From: Parvivirga hydrogeniphila
Lineage (GTDB): Bacteria > Actinomycetota > Coriobacteriia > Anaerosomatales > Anaerosomataceae
Direction: 5' to 3'
Assembly: GCF_023371205.1 (NCBI RefSeq)
Contig: NZ_JAMCCO010000001.1
Location: 988,662 to 1,052,661, forward strand
Length of the DNA stretch: 64,000 nt
This document shows positions 57,801 through 64,000 of the stretch, piece after piece (position 1 is the first letter of the stretch; each line of letters starts with the position of its first letter). The translations under genes were made by a program, and so were the position numbers. The notes beneath the pieces were generated by a model, which was not told the DNA's origin, ran no database searches, and worked only from the letters and a program-made list of their open reading frames with translations.

Positions 57801-57861
57801 CATCTTTTCAAAGAGCGGCACACGCCCGAGGGAGCGGAAACGGCGTCGATGTGGATTTCCG

Positions 57862-58662
57862 CTACAGTCCCAACCGGGCCGCCACATCCTCGTAATCCGG
57901 GTCCTCGGCGTAGAGCTTCTCGAGCTCGCTGCGCGCCCGCCGGCGCTGGCCGAGGTCTTCGTAAACCAAGGCGCGTTCGTACCTGAGCGCCCGGAGCAGT
58001 TCCTCGGACCGGTCCTTCTTCCGGCGCAGGGCGCCCGTCAGGGTCTCCCGCGCCGCATCCAGGAGCCCGAGCCCGCGCAGGGCCCTGGCCTTGTAGAGCA
58101 GCAGGGCAGTGTGAACCGGCGTCTCGTTCTCGATGCCTTCGGCCAACCGCACGATCTTCCGGCACGCGTTGACGCTCGCCGTCCCTGGCTCGCGCCCTTC
58201 GGGCGTGCCTCCGGCACGTCCAAATCGGCTGTCCTGCCGATTTGTGAGGATGGCCTCGACAAACAAGTCGGTGAAGATCTTTTCCGCCTGGGCAGAGTCG
58301 AGGACGTCACCGATCTTGTCGATGCGGAACTCTTCGAAGATGACCGCCAGTTTCTCCTCCAGGACCTCGCAGACACGGTGTTCCACCGAATCCTCGAACA
58401 CGAAGTTGATGGCGCGCACCGTGTGGGTCTGGCCAATGCGGTCCACCCGGCCGATGCGTTGCTCCAGGCGCATCGGGTTCCAAGGAATGTCGTAGTTGAT
58501 GACCACATGGCAGAACTGGAGGTGGAGCCCCTCACCACCGGCGTCCTTCGAGATGAGGATGCGGGCACCTGCCTGTGCGTGGCCGCACGCAGACAGGTCC
58601 TTGGCGAATCCATCGTGGATTCGCTTGCACTCCTCGAGTCCCATGGCGCTCCTCAAGTGCAT
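57862..58662 (-). pseudogene. Mosaic remnant of SNF2-type helicase joined to a TPR-like tail
   Basis: An open frame of 266 residues. Residues 1-135 contain only helicase motifs V and VI (SKDAGGEGLHLQFCHVV, PWNPMRLEQRIGRVDRIGQT) and the following conserved VCEVLEEKLAVIFEEF. Motifs I-IV, several hundred residues, are missing. Residues ~136-160 are encoded by a palindromic repeat (58186-58250). The rest (KARALRGLGLLDAARETL, YERALVYEDLGQRRRARSEL) is a TPR-like helical tail. A TAG two codons before the ATG is the stop of the peptidase gene in the same frame. I read it as a decayed, recombined gene rather than a functional helicase. Confidence 0.7.
58186..58250. repeat. Triple-hairpin palindromic repeat inside a reading frame
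   Basis: Three consecutive perfect stems: CGCCC/GGGCG (58193-58205, loop TTC), GTGCC/GGCAC (58205-58217, loop TCC) and AAATCGGC/GCCGATTT (58222-58243, loop TGTCCT). It adds about 20 residues (TNRQDSRFGRAGG...) to the - strand frame without breaking it and sits exactly at the junction of the helicase and TPR-like parts. Confidence 0.75.
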
Positions 58663-58668
58663 GAGCCC

Positions 58669-59007
58669 CTAGCTGTCTGTCCGGGAAAGGTATGCTCGAA
58701 CGAGGGCTCGAAAGAGGTTGTTATGGGCGCCTTGGTTGAGCTTGAGGTGCACCAGCTCGTGAACGATGACCTGTCGACGTAAGGCAGGTGGCTGCGTGAA
58801 CAGGTCCACGTTCAGCGTGAGCCGCCCACGGGTTGAGACGCTGGCCCACTTGCGCTTCATTGGACGAATATGGATTTCTTTGATGCGCTCCTCCACGCCG
58901 ATACGGCGCGCCCATGCACGGACCTCGGCCACAAGGATGTCCCGGGCTACAGCCTCCCCTATGAGCTCCTCGGGAGGTTCTGAAACCTTGTCTCTCGCGT
59001 TCTTCAT
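58669..59007 (-). CDS. YgjP-like zinc metallopeptidase (DUF45)
   Basis: A 112-residue protein with H83-E84-x2-H87 and a third histidine H95 (VIVHELVHLKL, QGAHNNLFRALV), typical of the DUF45/YgjP group related to SprT/WLM peptidases. It is shorter than most members (~170-240). The ATG overlaps the hsdR stop as ATGA, so it is translationally coupled to hsdR. Such genes often travel with type I restriction operons, where their role is unknown. Confidence 0.82.
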   Translation of the reverse strand: MKNARDKVSEPPEELIGEAVARDILVAEVRAWARRIGVEERIKEIHIRPMKRKWASVSTRGRLTLNVDLFTQPPALRRQVIVHELVHLKLNQGAHNNLFRALVRAYLSRTDS

Positions 59008-61901
59008 TGAACAGCTCTTCTGAGCAGGGTTAGCATCTCGTCGGCCCAAACGACCACGTCCTTGACGCTGGCGGCGATCAATTCCCGATAAAGCCGCTTT
59101 CGTAACTCTCGCTCATGAGCCTCGATCACGGCCCAATGGGGGAACTCCTTGAAGGCGGGCTCCACAGAGGCCGCCAAGCGTTCGGATCCTTTGGCGTCCA
59201 TCCCTTTCTGCACCCGCAACCACCAGGCCACTGCAAAGGCCTCGGGCGAGAGATCGCTTTCCTGGCGTTGCTTTTGGGCCTCCTGCAGATCGCGAACCAG
59301 CTCGGAGAGTTCTTGCAAAGCCTGCTGACTATTGAGCTGCCTCTCCTCAAAGGCGTGGCGGATGGCCTCGGCGCGTTCACCGATGGGGATCAGATGGGGC
59401 TGTTCCTTGCCCTTGGCTTCGACCAGGCGATGAAGGTCCTTGAGCAAGTTGAACACCTTGACCGTGTCGGGCTTTTCCTCCTTTATCACCGCCAAAAGCG
59501 CCCCCGCGCCGATTTCATAGGTCGCCTCCGGTTCATGCACAGCGTCGGTGGCCGTGTGTTTCTGTGCGATCTCAGCGGTCTTGCGCAGGAACGATTTGTC
59601 CACCGGAATGTGCGGTTCGTAGGCACTGCGAAGCAGCAGGTACATCGCCACGAGCGCCTGGTAATCCTCAAGGAAGGGACGCAGGAACGAATCGGGCGAC
59701 AAGATCTCGTACACCTCCTCCAGCTCACGAAAGTACGCGTAGAACGCCTCCCGGCGCTCCTTGTCCCGGAAGTGTTCAAGCACCGCCTCTGCCGCCTTGT
59801 CTTCGCTTTTGCCTGATGCCAGTGGAAGGAACTCGGCCCGTCCCTGCTCCATCAGAGCCACAAAGCGATCCTTGAGCACATCGAGCTCTCTGATCACGCC
59901 CTCCACATCGCGGGAGTCGAAGGCAAGCGCACGCTCCAAATTGTCGAAAATCCCCACGAAATCTACGATGAGCCCGCTCGTCTTGCGTCGCCCTTCCTTG
60001 TCCTCGTAAGGGCGATTGACACGGGCGATGGCCTGGAGCAGCAGGTGGTCACGCATCGGCTTATCCAGGTACATGCAATACAAAATCGGTGCGTCGTAGC
60101 CGGTGAGCAGCTTTTCGGTGACGATGAGGATCTGTGGGGGCTCGTCCGGCTTACGGAATGCCTTGCGCGCCCAAGCCTCTTCGTCGTCGCTGAGATGGTA
60201 GCGCCTCAGTTCGGCCGGGTCGTTGTGCCCGCGGCTTATCACCACCCGGCTCATCTCGTCAGGCAGATAGCGGTCCAAGGCTTCCTTGTAGAGGCCGCAA
60301 GCCTCCCGGTCCACCGCCACCAAGAGGGCCTTGTAGCCCATGGATCTTACGAACTGCCGGTAGTGCTCGGCCACGAAGCGGGCGATCTGGTCCACACGGT
60401 CGCGGTTCTTGAGCATGTTCTTCAGCGTGACGGCACGGTCCAGCACCCGGTTCAGCTCCTCCACGTCGGATACGCCCTCGAGTTCCGCTGCGGCCCAGAA
60501 TTCCCGCTCCATGGCCTCCCGGTCCACCACCAGGTCGTTGGGGGCCATCTGGTAGTGGAGGAGCACGGTGGTGCCGTCCTCGATGGACTCGCGAATGGAG
60601 TACTTGTCCAGGTAACCGCCGGGGTCGTCGCCGCCGAAGACCTTGAAGGTGCCCTTGCCGTGTTGGGTTTTGTCGATGGGGGTGCCGGTGAATCCTACGA
60701 AGGTGGCGTTGGGCAGGGCACCCATCAGGTAGTTGCCCAGGTCGCCGCCGGTGGAGCGATGGGCCTCGTCCACGAGCACGAAGACGTTTGGCCTCGTGCT
60801 CAGCTCTGCGTCCGCGTCGTCGAACTTGTGGATCATGGACACGATCAAGCCCCGTGTGTCCTCCCGCAGAAGCTTGCGCAGGTGGCGCTTGCTCCGGACT
60901 AGGTGCACACGGCCGAATCCCACCGCCGCCAGGTTCTGGAAGAGCTGCTGCTGCAGCTCGTTGCGGTCGACGATCATGAGGACTGTGGGGTTTTGGAAAC
61001 GGGGGTCTTCCAATAACCGCTTGGCCACTGTCAGCATGGTGTAGGTCTTTCCAGACCCCTGGGTGTGCCACACCAGCCCTCGAGTCCGGTCCGGTTCCTG
61101 GGCCCTGGCCACCACCTTCTCCACCGCCCGCATCTGGTGGGGCCGCAACACGGCCTTGCTTAATTCGCCGTCTTTGCGCACGAAGAGGATGTAGTCGGTC
61201 AGGAGTCGCAGGATGCGCCGAGGGGCCACAAAGGTCTTGACCAGGGTCTCGAAGTCGCCGGCCTGCTCGTCCTTCCAGCTGAAGAGGGCCTTGCGCGAGA
61301 GGTTCCAGGTGGGGCCGTAGAAGAATTGGACCATGTGGGTAAGCGTGAAGAGCTGGGCTTGGGCCATAAGCTCCGGTCCCTGCTCGTGGTAGCGGCGAAT
61401 CTGGTCAAAGGCCGCGGCGATCCCTTCGGGGCGGGTGGCGGCTTTGGTCTCCACCACCACGACCGGAATGCCGTTGACCAGCAGCACGATATCGGCACGG
61501 ATGGCGGTGTGGCCCGAAACAAAGCGGAACTCGTCGGTGATGAGGAAGGAGTTGGCCTCGGGACGGTCGGGGTCGAGCAGGCGGATGTTCTTCTCGCGGC
61601 GCTCGGCCTCCACAAAGAGGGTCTTCAGCCCTTTGAGGTATTCCCAGGCTTCCTGATTGCCCTCGATGGTGGGCCGCACCCGCACCAGGCGGGCGATGAC
61701 CTCCTCGGCCTTGGTGGACGAGTCCACCACACCGGGGTTGAGGCGCTGGAGCTGCTCGATGAGCGCGACCCGGAGCACCGGGCTCCCTTCCCCGCCGCGC
61801 CGCCTTAAGGCTTCTTCCGGTGGTAGGTAGGTCCAGCCCGCCTCTTCGGCGTAGCGGATGAAGGGGTTTTGCACCGCTTGGCGTTCACTGCCGAGGGACA
61901 T
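59004..61901 (-). CDS. hsdR: Type I restriction endonuclease subunit R
   Basis: A 965-residue motor/nuclease subunit. The N-terminal PD-(D/E)xK nuclease has D137 and E151-x-K153 (RADIVLLVNGIPVVVVETK). Helicase motifs are QGSGKT (281-286), DEAH (378-381), FVGFTGTP and LLLQAIARVNRPY. A C-terminal helical domain (EEKPDTVKVFNLLKDLHRL) contacts HsdM/S. ATG at 61901 has AGGAGGA six bases upstream; an in-frame ATG 12 codons earlier overlaps the transposase. No frameshift is visible, so it looks intact. Confidence 0.95.
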   Translation of the reverse strand: MSLGSERQAVQNPFIRYAEEAGWTYLPPEEALRRRGGEGSPVLRVALIEQLQRLNPGVVDSSTKAEEVIARLVRVRPTIEGNQEAWEYLKGLKTLFVEAERREKNIRLLDPDRPEANSFLITDEFRFVSGHTAIRADIVLLVNGIPVVVVETKAATRPEGIAAAFDQIRRYHEQGPELMAQAQLFTLTHMVQFFYGPTWNLSRKALFSWKDEQAGDFETLVKTFVAPRRILRLLTDYILFVRKDGELSKAVLRPHQMRAVEKVVARAQEPDRTRGLVWHTQGSGKTYTMLTVAKRLLEDPRFQNPTVLMIVDRNELQQQLFQNLAAVGFGRVHLVRSKRHLRKLLREDTRGLIVSMIHKFDDADAELSTRPNVFVLVDEAHRSTGGDLGNYLMGALPNATFVGFTGTPIDKTQHGKGTFKVFGGDDPGGYLDKYSIRESIEDGTTVLLHYQMAPNDLVVDREAMEREFWAAAELEGVSDVEELNRVLDRAVTLKNMLKNRDRVDQIARFVAEHYRQFVRSMGYKALLVAVDREACGLYKEALDRYLPDEMSRVVISRGHNDPAELRRYHLSDDEEAWARKAFRKPDEPPQILIVTEKLLTGYDAPILYCMYLDKPMRDHLLLQAIARVNRPYEDKEGRRKTSGLIVDFVGIFDNLERALAFDSRDVEGVIRELDVLKDRFVALMEQGRAEFLPLASGKSEDKAAEAVLEHFRDKERREAFYAYFRELEEVYEILSPDSFLRPFLEDYQALVAMYLLLRSAYEPHIPVDKSFLRKTAEIAQKHTATDAVHEPEATYEIGAGALLAVIKEEKPDTVKVFNLLKDLHRLVEAKGKEQPHLIPIGERAEAIRHAFEERQLNSQQALQELSELVRDLQEAQKQRQESDLSPEAFAVAWWLRVQKGMDAKGSERLAASVEPAFKEFPHWAVIEAHERELRKRLYRELIAASVKDVVVWADEMLTLLRRAVQ

Positions 61902-61912
61902 GGTTCGTCCTC

Positions 61913-61934
61913 CTAGGGGCACGTTGGGGCACGG
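61913..61934. repeat. Two GGGGCACG half-repeats at the transposase 3' end
   Basis: On the + strand CTAGGGGCACGT and GTTGGGGCACGG are adjacent and share the GGGGCACG core with the tandem repeats at 62235-62299. They encode the last residues of the transposase frame (RAPTCP). Confidence 0.5.
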
Positions 61935-62234
61935 CATACCGGGCCCGTATCATCATTGTGCAACATCCGCCAGATGTCCCGCGCCATGGGGTCGTTGCCC
62001 ATAGCGGCAGGGTTATACCGGTCCAGATGCCAGCGCTGTGGATTTTCCAGAATGTATTGGCGGACGGCGCCTAACGCCCGGTCATCCCGAATGATGTGTT
62101 CGTAATAATTGCGTTGCCAGACACGCGCGCCGGGTGTGCCGCGCATTTGGTTGATGCAGCGTGTGACCGCGGATTTGAACGCCCGAACAATCGTCGGAAT
62201 TGAACCGGGAACGGGCTTGCCAAATTGTTCCATG

Positions 62235-62299
62235 GTAGGGGCACGGCGGCGCGTAGGGGCACGGTGTTTCGTAGGGGCACGGCGGCGCCGTGCCCCTAC
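62235..62299. repeat. 18-bp tandem repeats ending in a REP-like palindrome
   Basis: Three direct copies: GTAGGGGCACGGCGGCGC (62235-62252), GTAGGGGCACGGTGTTTC (62253-62270) and GTAGGGGCACGGCGGCGC (62271-62288). The third copy continues into its own inverse, giving 13-base perfect arms (62271-62283 and 62287-62299) around a 3-base loop. On the - strand they encode repeated RAPT residues inside the transposase. Confidence 0.85.
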
Positions 62300-62566
62300 G
62301 TCATCGACGATCCAAATGATGCCGTGAATATGGTTGGGCATGACCACAAATTCGTCGGGGAACAATTCCATTTCGGTGCGGATCTCCGCGGAACGGAACC
62401 ATTCTTCCCCACGATTCCGCCCCATTCGTTCAACACCATTTCCCCATCCACCACGCGGCCAAAGAGGGGCACGCGTTCGTGGGTGCAAATCGTCACGAAA
62501 TACGCACCCGGTTGGGTGTAATCGTACCCCTTCAACCGAATGGGACGGCGATGGCGGCGTTCGGGG

Positions 62567-63922
62567 TTATACCGTGACATGTTCTTCCTCAACGAATCGT
62601 TTTACAAACTCCGCCGGCAATCGCACTTTCGCCGTCATCAGGTGGTGCAGCAGCGCCTTGAAGAGCCTCTCCAGCGCCTCCTTGCGCCTTTCTTCGGCCT
62701 GGATCTTTTCGTCCACCGCGCGCAGGATGCAGGCGATTTCCTGCTGTTCGGGGATAGGGGGGAGGGGGAGGGGGAGTATTTGTAGCTTGCGTTTATTCAG
62801 AGTTTTACCTTTCACGTATGCGTCGAGCAGAGCATCGTAATCGATGCTTTGTAGCAAAAAGAAGAGAAAGTCCTTTACTGCCCGTGCTTCCTCGGGAAAA
62901 ATGGACGCGATGGCTTCGTTATGAACTGCTGGAATACCGAGAATTCCTACTTTCCCGATAGTTAGCTTAAAGCTCAACAGCAAAGTGTCTTCCGGCACGA
63001 AGGTATTGCCAAAGACTTCGTCGAAGGCTTCTTGCGAAATTTTCTCTTTAGTATCCTTTATGATGCCATTATTCAAGTCAGAAATAGAGACCCAAGGAAA
63101 TTCGCCTTGTTGCCAGTATCTTTTTTCTTTTCTTGCAGGTGTCCGTCCTAACTTTAGTTGTGCCACCTCCTCCAACCTCACCACCTGCCAGTGCGCTGGG
63201 ATGGGGCCGATTTCGGTCTCCTGCAGGGGGACTTGGTCGGCCTGGTCCACGGGGACGGGGCCGTAGGTGAAGAGGTGGCGCATGAGGCTCTTTTTCAGCT
63301 CCCGCGCGGCGGCGATGACCCGCTCGGTAGCCTCCTTCGCCTCCTGCACCGTGCGCAAAACATGGGCAATGGCGCGCTGTTCAGGGAGCGGGGGGAGGGG
63401 GATGGGGGCTTGGCTGAGCGCTTTCCATGATGTGCGCGGATGGTTCACACCTGTAGTGGTTGTAATGGCATGTTGTAGAACGAAAGTGGAGTGCATCCAA
63501 GAGGCCATGAAGTAACAATCCGACTTCTTTGGTATCAAGACAAGGATGTCGGTTGAGCATACCCCTTCCCATTCAGCAATGGCAGATTTATCGAGGTATG
63601 GGCGTAGCTTTCCATACAATACATCACCAGGTTTGAAAACAGCCTTTGCACTTTTGGTCTCATGTGCCGCTCCATAGCGCCGAATCCTGATTTCGCCTGA
63701 GTCTAAATGTTCAAGACCCACATATCGAGCATTAGGCGCATCTGAGGGCGAAATCGTACCCTTACGCAAAGCCGCCACCTCCCCCAACCGCACCACCCGC
63801 CAGTGCGCCGGCAGGGGGCCAAGTTCGGTCATGGGGTAGCCGTCGGGCAGGGGCGTGCCCGTGTCGGCTGCCCCTGGCTTGTGCTGTTTCTGGGATTCTA
63901 ACTTGTGCTCCAGCGAAGTCAT
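62567..63922 (-). CDS. hsdS: Type I restriction specificity subunit S
   Basis: A 451-residue HsdS with two target-recognition domains, each followed by a conserved helix. TRD1 (about residues 30-175, starting LGPLPAHWRVVRLGEVAALR) is followed by LPPLPEQRAIAHVLRTVQEA. TRD2 (about 235-390, starting IGPIPAHWQVVRLEEVAQLK) is followed by LPPIPEQQEIACILRAVDEK. The two halves recognise the two parts of a bipartite DNA target. ATG 63922 has GGAAGGAA eight bases upstream and overlaps an upstream stop as ATGA. The last residues (EEEHVTV) run into the transposase start. Confidence 0.94.
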   Translation of the reverse strand: MTSLEHKLESQKQHKPGAADTGTPLPDGYPMTELGPLPAHWRVVRLGEVAALRKGTISPSDAPNARYVGLEHLDSGEIRIRRYGAAHETKSAKAVFKPGDVLYGKLRPYLDKSAIAEWEGVCSTDILVLIPKKSDCYFMASWMHSTFVLQHAITTTTGVNHPRTSWKALSQAPIPLPPLPEQRAIAHVLRTVQEAKEATERVIAAARELKKSLMRHLFTYGPVPVDQADQVPLQETEIGPIPAHWQVVRLEEVAQLKLGRTPARKEKRYWQQGEFPWVSISDLNNGIIKDTKEKISQEAFDEVFGNTFVPEDTLLLSFKLTIGKVGILGIPAVHNEAIASIFPEEARAVKDFLFFLLQSIDYDALLDAYVKGKTLNKRKLQILPLPLPPIPEQQEIACILRAVDEKIQAEERRKEALERLFKALLHHLMTAKVRLPAEFVKRFVEEEHVTV

Positions 63923-64000
63923 GGCAAATATTCCTTCCGAAGCGTCTTCAGGTCCCCAAGGCACTGCTTGAGATCCCCGGGAGGAGGCACCTGATGGTCA
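63919..64000 (-). CDS. 3' end of an unidentified gene upstream of hsdS
   Basis: The - strand frame is open from the window edge for 26 codons (ends GDLKTLRKEYLP) and stops with TGA overlapping the hsdS ATG. The overlap implies an operon partner. By position it could be hsdM or a small accessory gene, but the fragment is too short to identify. Confidence 0.4.
   Translation of the reverse strand, partial: DHQVPPPGDLKQCLGDLKTLRKEYLP

What the first reader, a model, noticed from the sequence alone, without database searches (positions are those of the whole stretch)
57862..58662. Chimeric helicase remnant joined through a palindromic repeat
Helicase motifs V-VI and the next conserved block end exactly where a triple-hairpin repeat begins. 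After the repeat the frame continues as an unrelated-looking TPR-like tail ending YEDVAARLGL. The repeat is read through in frame (about 20 residues). This resembles repeat-mediated gene fusion or in-frame palindromic-element insertion as described for Rickettsia RPEs.
Basis: partly seen in the sequence, partly recalled or inferred. Interest (0 to 1): 0.6.

Follow-up and report, generated by a model that had tools for sequence, protein, structure and literature searches.

The report
BREX helicase remnant fused at palindromic repeat
A broken anti-phage (BREX type 3) helicase gene has been joined in frame to the end of an unrelated TPR gene exactly at a 77-base hairpin repeat of a mobile-looking family that also sits, in frame, inside other BREX genes in distant bacteria, so a small palindromic element seems to travel with, and remodel, phage-defence genes.

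Summary
ORF 57862-58662 (-, 266 aa) is a real chimera. Residues 1-139 are an internal piece of the type-3 BREX helicase (BrxHII); the last ~101 residues are the 3' end of a DUF4236+TPR gene; a 77-bp hairpin element lies between them with no leftover base on either side. Both parents exist intact, without the element, in other genomes of the phylum: BrxHII of G147 (933 aa, 91% DNA identity) and the TPR protein of G139 (346 aa, 86%).

The element belongs to a covarying four-hairpin family (R1): 106 copies in Microbulbifer rhizosphaerae, mostly gammaproteobacterial, absent from sister species G001 and G002, and present twice here, both in BREX genes of one 12-kb defence island between rpoD and tRNA-Asn. 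The second copy is a clean 75-bp in-frame insertion (empty site in G147). In two unrelated MAGs the only detected copy lies in frame in BREX-3 pglZ. The helicase piece also carries a second clean in-frame palindrome (30 bp).

Best explanation: a horizontally acquired BREX-3 operon gained palindromic insertions, was gutted by restriction-modification genes, and its helicase was fused to the TPR gene by recombination at the element. The recombination step is inferred; an assembly misjoin is not excluded.

The parts
57862..58662 (-). Chimeric ORF, 266 aa: BrxHII fragment + element + DUF4236-TPR C-terminus
57862..58167 (-). 3' end of a DUF4236+TPR gene (ACRKIV...RLGL, with its own stop codon); 86% DNA identity to codons 246-346 of G139's intact 346-aa gene; the N-terminal part is absent from this genome
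58168..58244 (.). 77-bp hairpin element, family R1, copy 1; invariant hairpin CAAATCGGC-TGTCCT-GCCGATTTG at 58221-58244; model match 58170-58245, 87.3 bits
58245..58567 (-). Internal fragment of type-3 BREX helicase BrxHII (motifs V-VI); 91% DNA identity to G147's intact 933-aa gene
58568..58597 (.). Second in-frame palindrome, 30 bp (LSACGHAQAG), absent from G147 and seven other BrxHII homologues; near-identical palindromes occur in G334
58598..58668 (-). Continuation of the BrxHII fragment (homologous to NGSMDMGERKRVQDAFAKD), truncated at the ygjP stop codon; contains a perfect 9-bp-arm hairpin 58604-58624
58669..59049 (-). YgjP-like metallopeptidase gene (PF01863), part of the restriction-modification block that truncates brxHII
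59004..61937 (-). hsdR, type I restriction subunit, 977 aa
61913..62592 (-). Frameshifted Y1/RAYT-like transposase gene (Y1_Tnp, E 3.6e-5) carrying palindromic GTAGGGGCACGG repeats in frame at 62234-62300
62567..63964 (-). hsdS-like specificity subunit (named from its sequence and place between hsdM and hsdR; not run against a profile library)
57801..64000 (.). Part of the island inside the window. In extended coordinates it runs to 70007, at tRNA-Asn, with hsdM, brxC', mrr, brxF', element copy 2 (69712-69787) and the HTH gene. G002 has rpoD and tRNA-Asn about 70 bp apart

Best explanation
The ORF is a non-functional chimeric remnant. Shown: a BREX type 3 operon related to G147's (81-94% DNA identity piecewise) lies in an island between rpoD and tRNA-Asn that sister species lack; most of brxC, all of pglX and the front of brxHII are missing and type I (hsdM/S/R, ygjP) and Mrr restriction genes stand in their place; palindromic elements were inserted in frame (a 75-bp R1 copy in the HTH gene, a 30-bp palindrome in brxHII); another R1 copy sits exactly between the brxHII fragment and the 3' end of a DUF4236-TPR gene. 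Inferred: R1 copies had inserted both in brxHII and in the TPR gene (possibly in an earlier host), and recombination or replication slippage between them joined the two halves, replacing the rest of brxHII, pglZ and brxA. All three frames of the element are open in this direction, so the fusion stayed readable. Also inferred: R1 behaves as a REP-like mobile palindrome carried between phyla by BREX-3 operons.
For: Parents intact and separate: G147 BrxHII 933 aa continuing NPDVVETKVDEVLKS after EAIL; G139 TPR gene 346 aa with no element or helicase. Exact junctions at both element ends. Operon collinearity with G147, HTH-brxF-brxC', and PADLOC hits BrxF 1.4e-44, BrxC 2.4e-19 (first 45 residues), BrxHI|BrxHII 4.6e-66. 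Clean in-frame insertions against empty sites: copy 2, 75 bp; 30-bp palindrome. Element family: covariation in helices 1-3 (score 0.267 against 0.089 shuffled); 106 copies in Microbulbifer rhizosphaerae, 2 here, 0 in G001/G002, one weak match in G003. Copies in frame in BREX-3 pglZ at the same site in L022 and L047, each the only copy found in its genome. Decay: motif V STDAGGEGLNL changed to SKDAGGEGLHL, plus two further radical changes.
Against: No genome was found with an R1 copy in the TPR gene or at this site in an otherwise intact brxHII, so the intermediates are hypothetical. The TPR fragment's closest match is in the host's phylum while the element family is mainly gammaproteobacterial, so the order of events and the donor are unclear. 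No att repeat was found at the rpoD side. Assembly error cannot be tested without reads.
Confidence: 0.7

Rival explanations
1. Assembly artefact: the assembler joined two unrelated contigs at the shared 77-bp repeat, so the chimera does not exist in any cell.
For: The junction lies exactly on a repeat with a 24-bp core shared by many genomes, and two direct copies lie 11.5 kb apart.
Against: Both ends of the island join host chromosome that is syntenic with sister species (rpoD, tRNA-Asn), the contig is 1.13 Mb, and the two copies differ at 7 of 67 aligned sites. The helicase piece is already a pseudogene (truncated at ygjP where no repeat lies, motif V mutated, extra palindrome), which is not expected if an intact foreign gene had been misjoined.
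Confidence: 0.12
2. One-ended transposition: the element moved into brxHII together with adjacent TPR-gene DNA in a single event, by an HUH/RAYT-like transposase, without recombination between two copies.
For: A RAYT-like gene lies in the island; the copy-2 insertion has no target-site duplication longer than about 2 bp, as with single-strand HUH transposition.
Against: The RAYT-like gene is frameshifted and has no R1 element beside it; no similar element-plus-flank movement was seen in other loci.
Confidence: 0.13
3. Campbell-type integration: a circle carrying the BREX/restriction segment and an R1 copy recombined with a chromosomal R1 copy between the HTH gene and the TPR end, giving the two direct R1 copies that flank the segment.
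For: The two copies are in direct orientation at the two ends of the BREX remnant, and the element is read in the same frame in both.
Against: HTH, brxF and brxC' are collinear with G147 across copy 2, which is a clean insertion there, so the HTH gene belongs to the same operon rather than to a separate chromosomal site.
Confidence: 0.05

Closest known systems
Intragenic REPs ('REP-decorated' genes), GTAG/CGTC super-families (Di Nocera 2013, PMC3733652)
   Same: Short palindromes in multiple copies, mostly intergenic, sometimes inside ORFs; several families sit inside larger palindromes, as many R1 copies do
   Different: R1 is about 75 bp with four hairpins rather than one of 20-40 bp; the invariant hairpin has a 6-nt loop and no CCA tail, and a CGTC-like foot in only part of the copies; it is carried in BREX operons across phyla
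Rickettsia palindromic elements (Ogata 2000/2002, as summarised in PMC10969869)
   Same: Palindromic units inserted in frame in unrelated protein genes
   Different: RPEs are about 150 bp and encode a conserved peptide; R1 is read in different frames in brxHII/HTH (TNRQDSRFGR) and pglZ (KSAGQPIW); different host range
BREX type 3 (BrxF, BrxC/DUF6079, PglX, BrxHII, PglZ, BrxA; PMC12839542)
   Same: The fragment is BrxHII; brxF and the brxC start lie at the other end of the island in operon order
   Different: The operon is destroyed: brxF has an internal deletion, brxC is reduced to fragments, pglX, pglZ and brxA are absent from the island, and restriction genes fill the gap

Membership tests
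BREX type 3 helicase BrxHII | Sequence homology to BrxHII | tested here: met
   PADLOC 4.6e-66; 91% DNA identity to G147's gene next to pglZ and brxA homologues
BREX type 3 helicase BrxHII | Full-length SNF2 helicase of about 910-940 aa | tested here: not met
   Only about 128 aligned residues remain: a remnant, not a member
BREX type 3 system | Complete operon brxF-brxC-pglX-brxHII-pglZ-brxA | tested here: not met
   Only brxF (deleted), brxC fragments and the brxHII fragment were found in the island
R1 element family (defined here) | Match to covariance model R1 | tested here: met
   87.3 and 85.3 bits for the two copies; both are among the 28 sequences the model was built from. Independent support is the exact-pattern scan
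CGTC/GTAG REP | Unpaired GTAG or CGTC foot, stem 8-9 bp (CGTC), loop 4-5 nt, CCA tail | tested here: not met
   Foot is CGTC or CGCC in most copies, stem 9 bp, loop 6 nt, no CCA tail (against PMC3733652)
RAYT-mobilised REP | The same repeat flanks a RAYT gene | tested here: not met
   No R1 match near 61913-62592
MITE | Target-site duplication on insertion | tested here: not met
   Copy-2 empty site shows no duplication longer than about 2 bp
Rickettsia RPE | In-frame insertion in unrelated genes | tested here: met
   HTH copy, pglZ copies
Rickettsia RPE | Conserved encoded peptide (fixed frame) | tested here: not met
   Frames differ between BREX genes
Rickettsia RPE | Sequence homology to RPE families | not tested
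   No RPE sequence set was searched

The most novel reading that the evidence does not exclude
R1 is an undescribed, structured mobile palindrome with a real affinity for phage-defence (BREX-3) genes: it inserts in frame, is tolerated or useful there (kept at the same site in PglZ proteins only 54% identical), spreads between phyla with the operon, and through recombination between copies creates new protein fusions.
Probability: 0.2. Interest if true: 0.75.

Novelty: new variant of a known kind. Interest (0 to 1): 0.5.

Why it matters
In-frame palindromic insertions have been known since the Rickettsia RPEs, but how such elements reach new genomes and whether they build new proteins is mostly argued without empty sites. 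Here there are clean empty and filled sites in a related operon, a chimeric gene whose two parents are both known intact, and a plausible vehicle (a horizontally moving defence operon). If confirmed, defence islands would be carriers for REP-like elements between phyla, and R1 insertions in BREX genes would make the tolerance or usefulness of such insertions directly testable.

Tried and rejected
The helicase and TPR tail as one natural protein: rejected, since no homologue has both. Tail as a BrxHII C-terminal domain: rejected (PADLOC gave no hit for the tail; normal BrxHII continues differently). Element as a known RNA family: no Rfam match in six sources. Literature search for the element's core sequence: none. 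Elements as inserts in tRNA T-loops (suggested by TCGAACC flanks): rejected on inspection, since the flank is a separate hairpin, although several copies lie downstream of tRNAs. Element in plasmid or phage records: no match at the sensitivity used. BREX helicase in viral contigs: none. R1 as a constant part of BREX-3 pglZ: rejected, 1 of 9 pglZ-bearing genomes in a sample of 398. The stop-codon-poor reverse frames of R1 (all three open in 19 of 28 against 8.0 expected) were not used as evidence of selection, because the sequences share an invariant core.

Full report
OBSERVATION. ORF 57862-58662 (minus strand, 266 aa) exists as described. It has Helicase_C (aa 33-77) and TPR hits in the tail. 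Between them lies a hairpin-rich stretch, 58168-58244, that folds better than shuffled sequence as single-stranded DNA (z = -2.8) and occurs nowhere else in the window.

THE HELICASE HALF. PADLOC assigns it to the BREX helicase model BrxHI|BrxHII (E 4.6e-66, profile 510-637 of 933). Plasmid relatives are full-length 'helicase-related' genes followed by BREX-3 pglZ, so it is the type-3 helicase, called BrxHII in PMC12839542. The closest relative found is in G147 (same phylum; 933 aa, next to pglZ and brxA homologues): 91% DNA identity over window 58245-58567, ending exactly at the element. In G147 the protein continues NPDVVETKVDEVLKS and shows no TPR tail. On the other side the window copy carries a 30-bp palindrome, CCTGTCTGCGTGCGGCCACGCACAGGCAGG (58568-58597, LSACGHAQAG), between AAGGA and TGCCC, which are contiguous in G147; seven other homologues also lack it. 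Homology resumes for about 23 codons and stops at the ygjP stop codon. Two palindromes of nearly the same sequence lie in G334 of the same phylum, where no long frame runs through them. Motif V is altered at conserved sites (STDAGGEGLNL to SKDAGGEGLHL). The fragment is a decaying remnant.

THE TAIL. The last ~101 residues match, at 86% DNA identity and without gaps, the 3' end of an intact 346-aa DUF4236+TPR gene in G139. The match begins at 58167, the base next to the element, and ends at the stop codon. The rest of that gene is absent from G000, and the gene is absent from G001 and G002.

THE ELEMENT. An exact scan of 84,980 genomes with the 26-nt core gave 49 stretches, nearly all gammaproteobacterial, with one Lentisphaera MAG among the exceptions. 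They share four hairpins. Helices 1-3 covary (covariation score 0.267 observed, 0.089 shuffled, at most 0.064 when slid); helix 4 is invariant partly because it was the search pattern. Model R1 finds 106 copies in Microbulbifer rhizosphaerae, 1-12 in ten other genomes reached through the scan, 2 in G000, none in G001, G002 or G139, and one weak match (E 0.009) in G003. Rfam gave no match. Many copies sit inside other palindromes, for example CCCTCTCCC...GGGAGAGGG or GATGGGCAC...GTGCCCATC.

THE ISLAND. In G002 rpoD and tRNA-Asn are about 70 bp apart; G001 has multihaem cytochrome genes there; G000 has 12.2 kb. From tRNA-Asn the order is: HTH gene with R1 copy 2; brxF with an internal deletion (BrxF E 1.4e-44); mrr; brxC fragments (first 45 residues E 2.4e-19, then a piece from 1.3 kb further on); hsdM; an 831-aa ATPase-like gene; hsdS; a frameshifted Y1/RAYT-like gene; hsdR; ygjP; the brxHII fragment; R1 copy 1; the TPR end; rpoD. 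HTH, brxF and brxC' are collinear with G147 at 81-94% DNA identity. R1 copy 2 is a clean 75-bp in-frame insertion near the end of the HTH gene, between GATACG and AAAG, which are contiguous in G147; no target duplication longer than about 2 bp is visible. So R1 insertion is shown at copy 2, and inferred at copy 1.

R1 TRAVELS WITH BREX-3. In L022 (Lentisphaera MAG) and L047 (Rhodanobacteraceae MAG) the only R1 copy found in each genome lies in frame inside pglZ of a BREX-3 operon, at the same place before PFDHxDI; G147 and eight other PglZ lack it. The two PglZ are 54% identical. Completeness of those two MAGs is not known here. In a sample of 398 Pseudomonadota genomes, 9 have such a pglZ and only the L047 one carries R1, so R1 is not a regular part of the operon.

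MECHANISM. Two intact, unrelated genes meet exactly at an element that is known to insert cleanly in this same operon. The simplest account is that R1 copies were present in both genes and recombined. One-ended transposition, Campbell integration and an assembly misjoin are rivals; only reads can exclude the last. In-frame readability is weak evidence of selection: the three frames in this direction are open in copy 1, and one fusion in three would keep the frame anyway.

KNOWN OR NEW. In-frame REPs and RPEs are precedents (PMC3733652, PMC10969869). R1 does not meet the GTAG/CGTC definition, is not beside a RAYT gene, and does not encode one constant peptide. I file it as a new variant of a known kind. 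'New' for R1 rests on one literature search for its core sequence in open-access papers and on Rfam.

Noticed in passing
62234-62300: The frameshifted Y1/RAYT-like gene carries a 14-bp-arm palindrome CGTAGGGGCACGG...CCGTGCCCCTACG and further copies of GTAGGGGCACGG, read in frame as RRAPT repeats: another palindrome inside a coding frame of the same island, of GTAG type.
   Followed up: partly
L022:5747-5823 and L047:2247-2323: R1 element in frame inside BREX-3 pglZ at the same site in MAGs of two phyla, with compensatory differences in the hairpin stems.
   Followed up: yes
L019-L067 (e.g. L025, L043, L050, L052, L065, L066): Many gammaproteobacterial R1 copies are nested in the middle of other, longer palindromes, as if hairpin loops were the preferred target.
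   Followed up: partly
L023, L040, L046, L053: R1 copies lie about 70-80 bp downstream of tRNA genes and are followed by a GAACC...GGTTCTC hairpin.
   Followed up: partly
57801-70007 (extended coordinates; L003, L004): The rpoD/tRNA-Asn interval is an insertion hotspot: empty in G002, multihaem cytochromes in G001, BREX remnant plus type I and Mrr restriction genes in G000. No att repeat was found.
   Followed up: partly
L140 and L142 (genome G334): Near copies of the 30-bp palindrome of brxHII, both in a longer shared palindromic context (CCTGTCTGCGTG...CACGCACAGGCAGGCGCAGACAGG).
   Followed up: no
58604-58624: A perfect 9-bp-arm hairpin GCGAATCCA-TCG-TGGATTCGC inside the brxHII fragment next to the 30-bp palindrome; the homologous sequence in G147 is not palindromic.
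   Followed up: no
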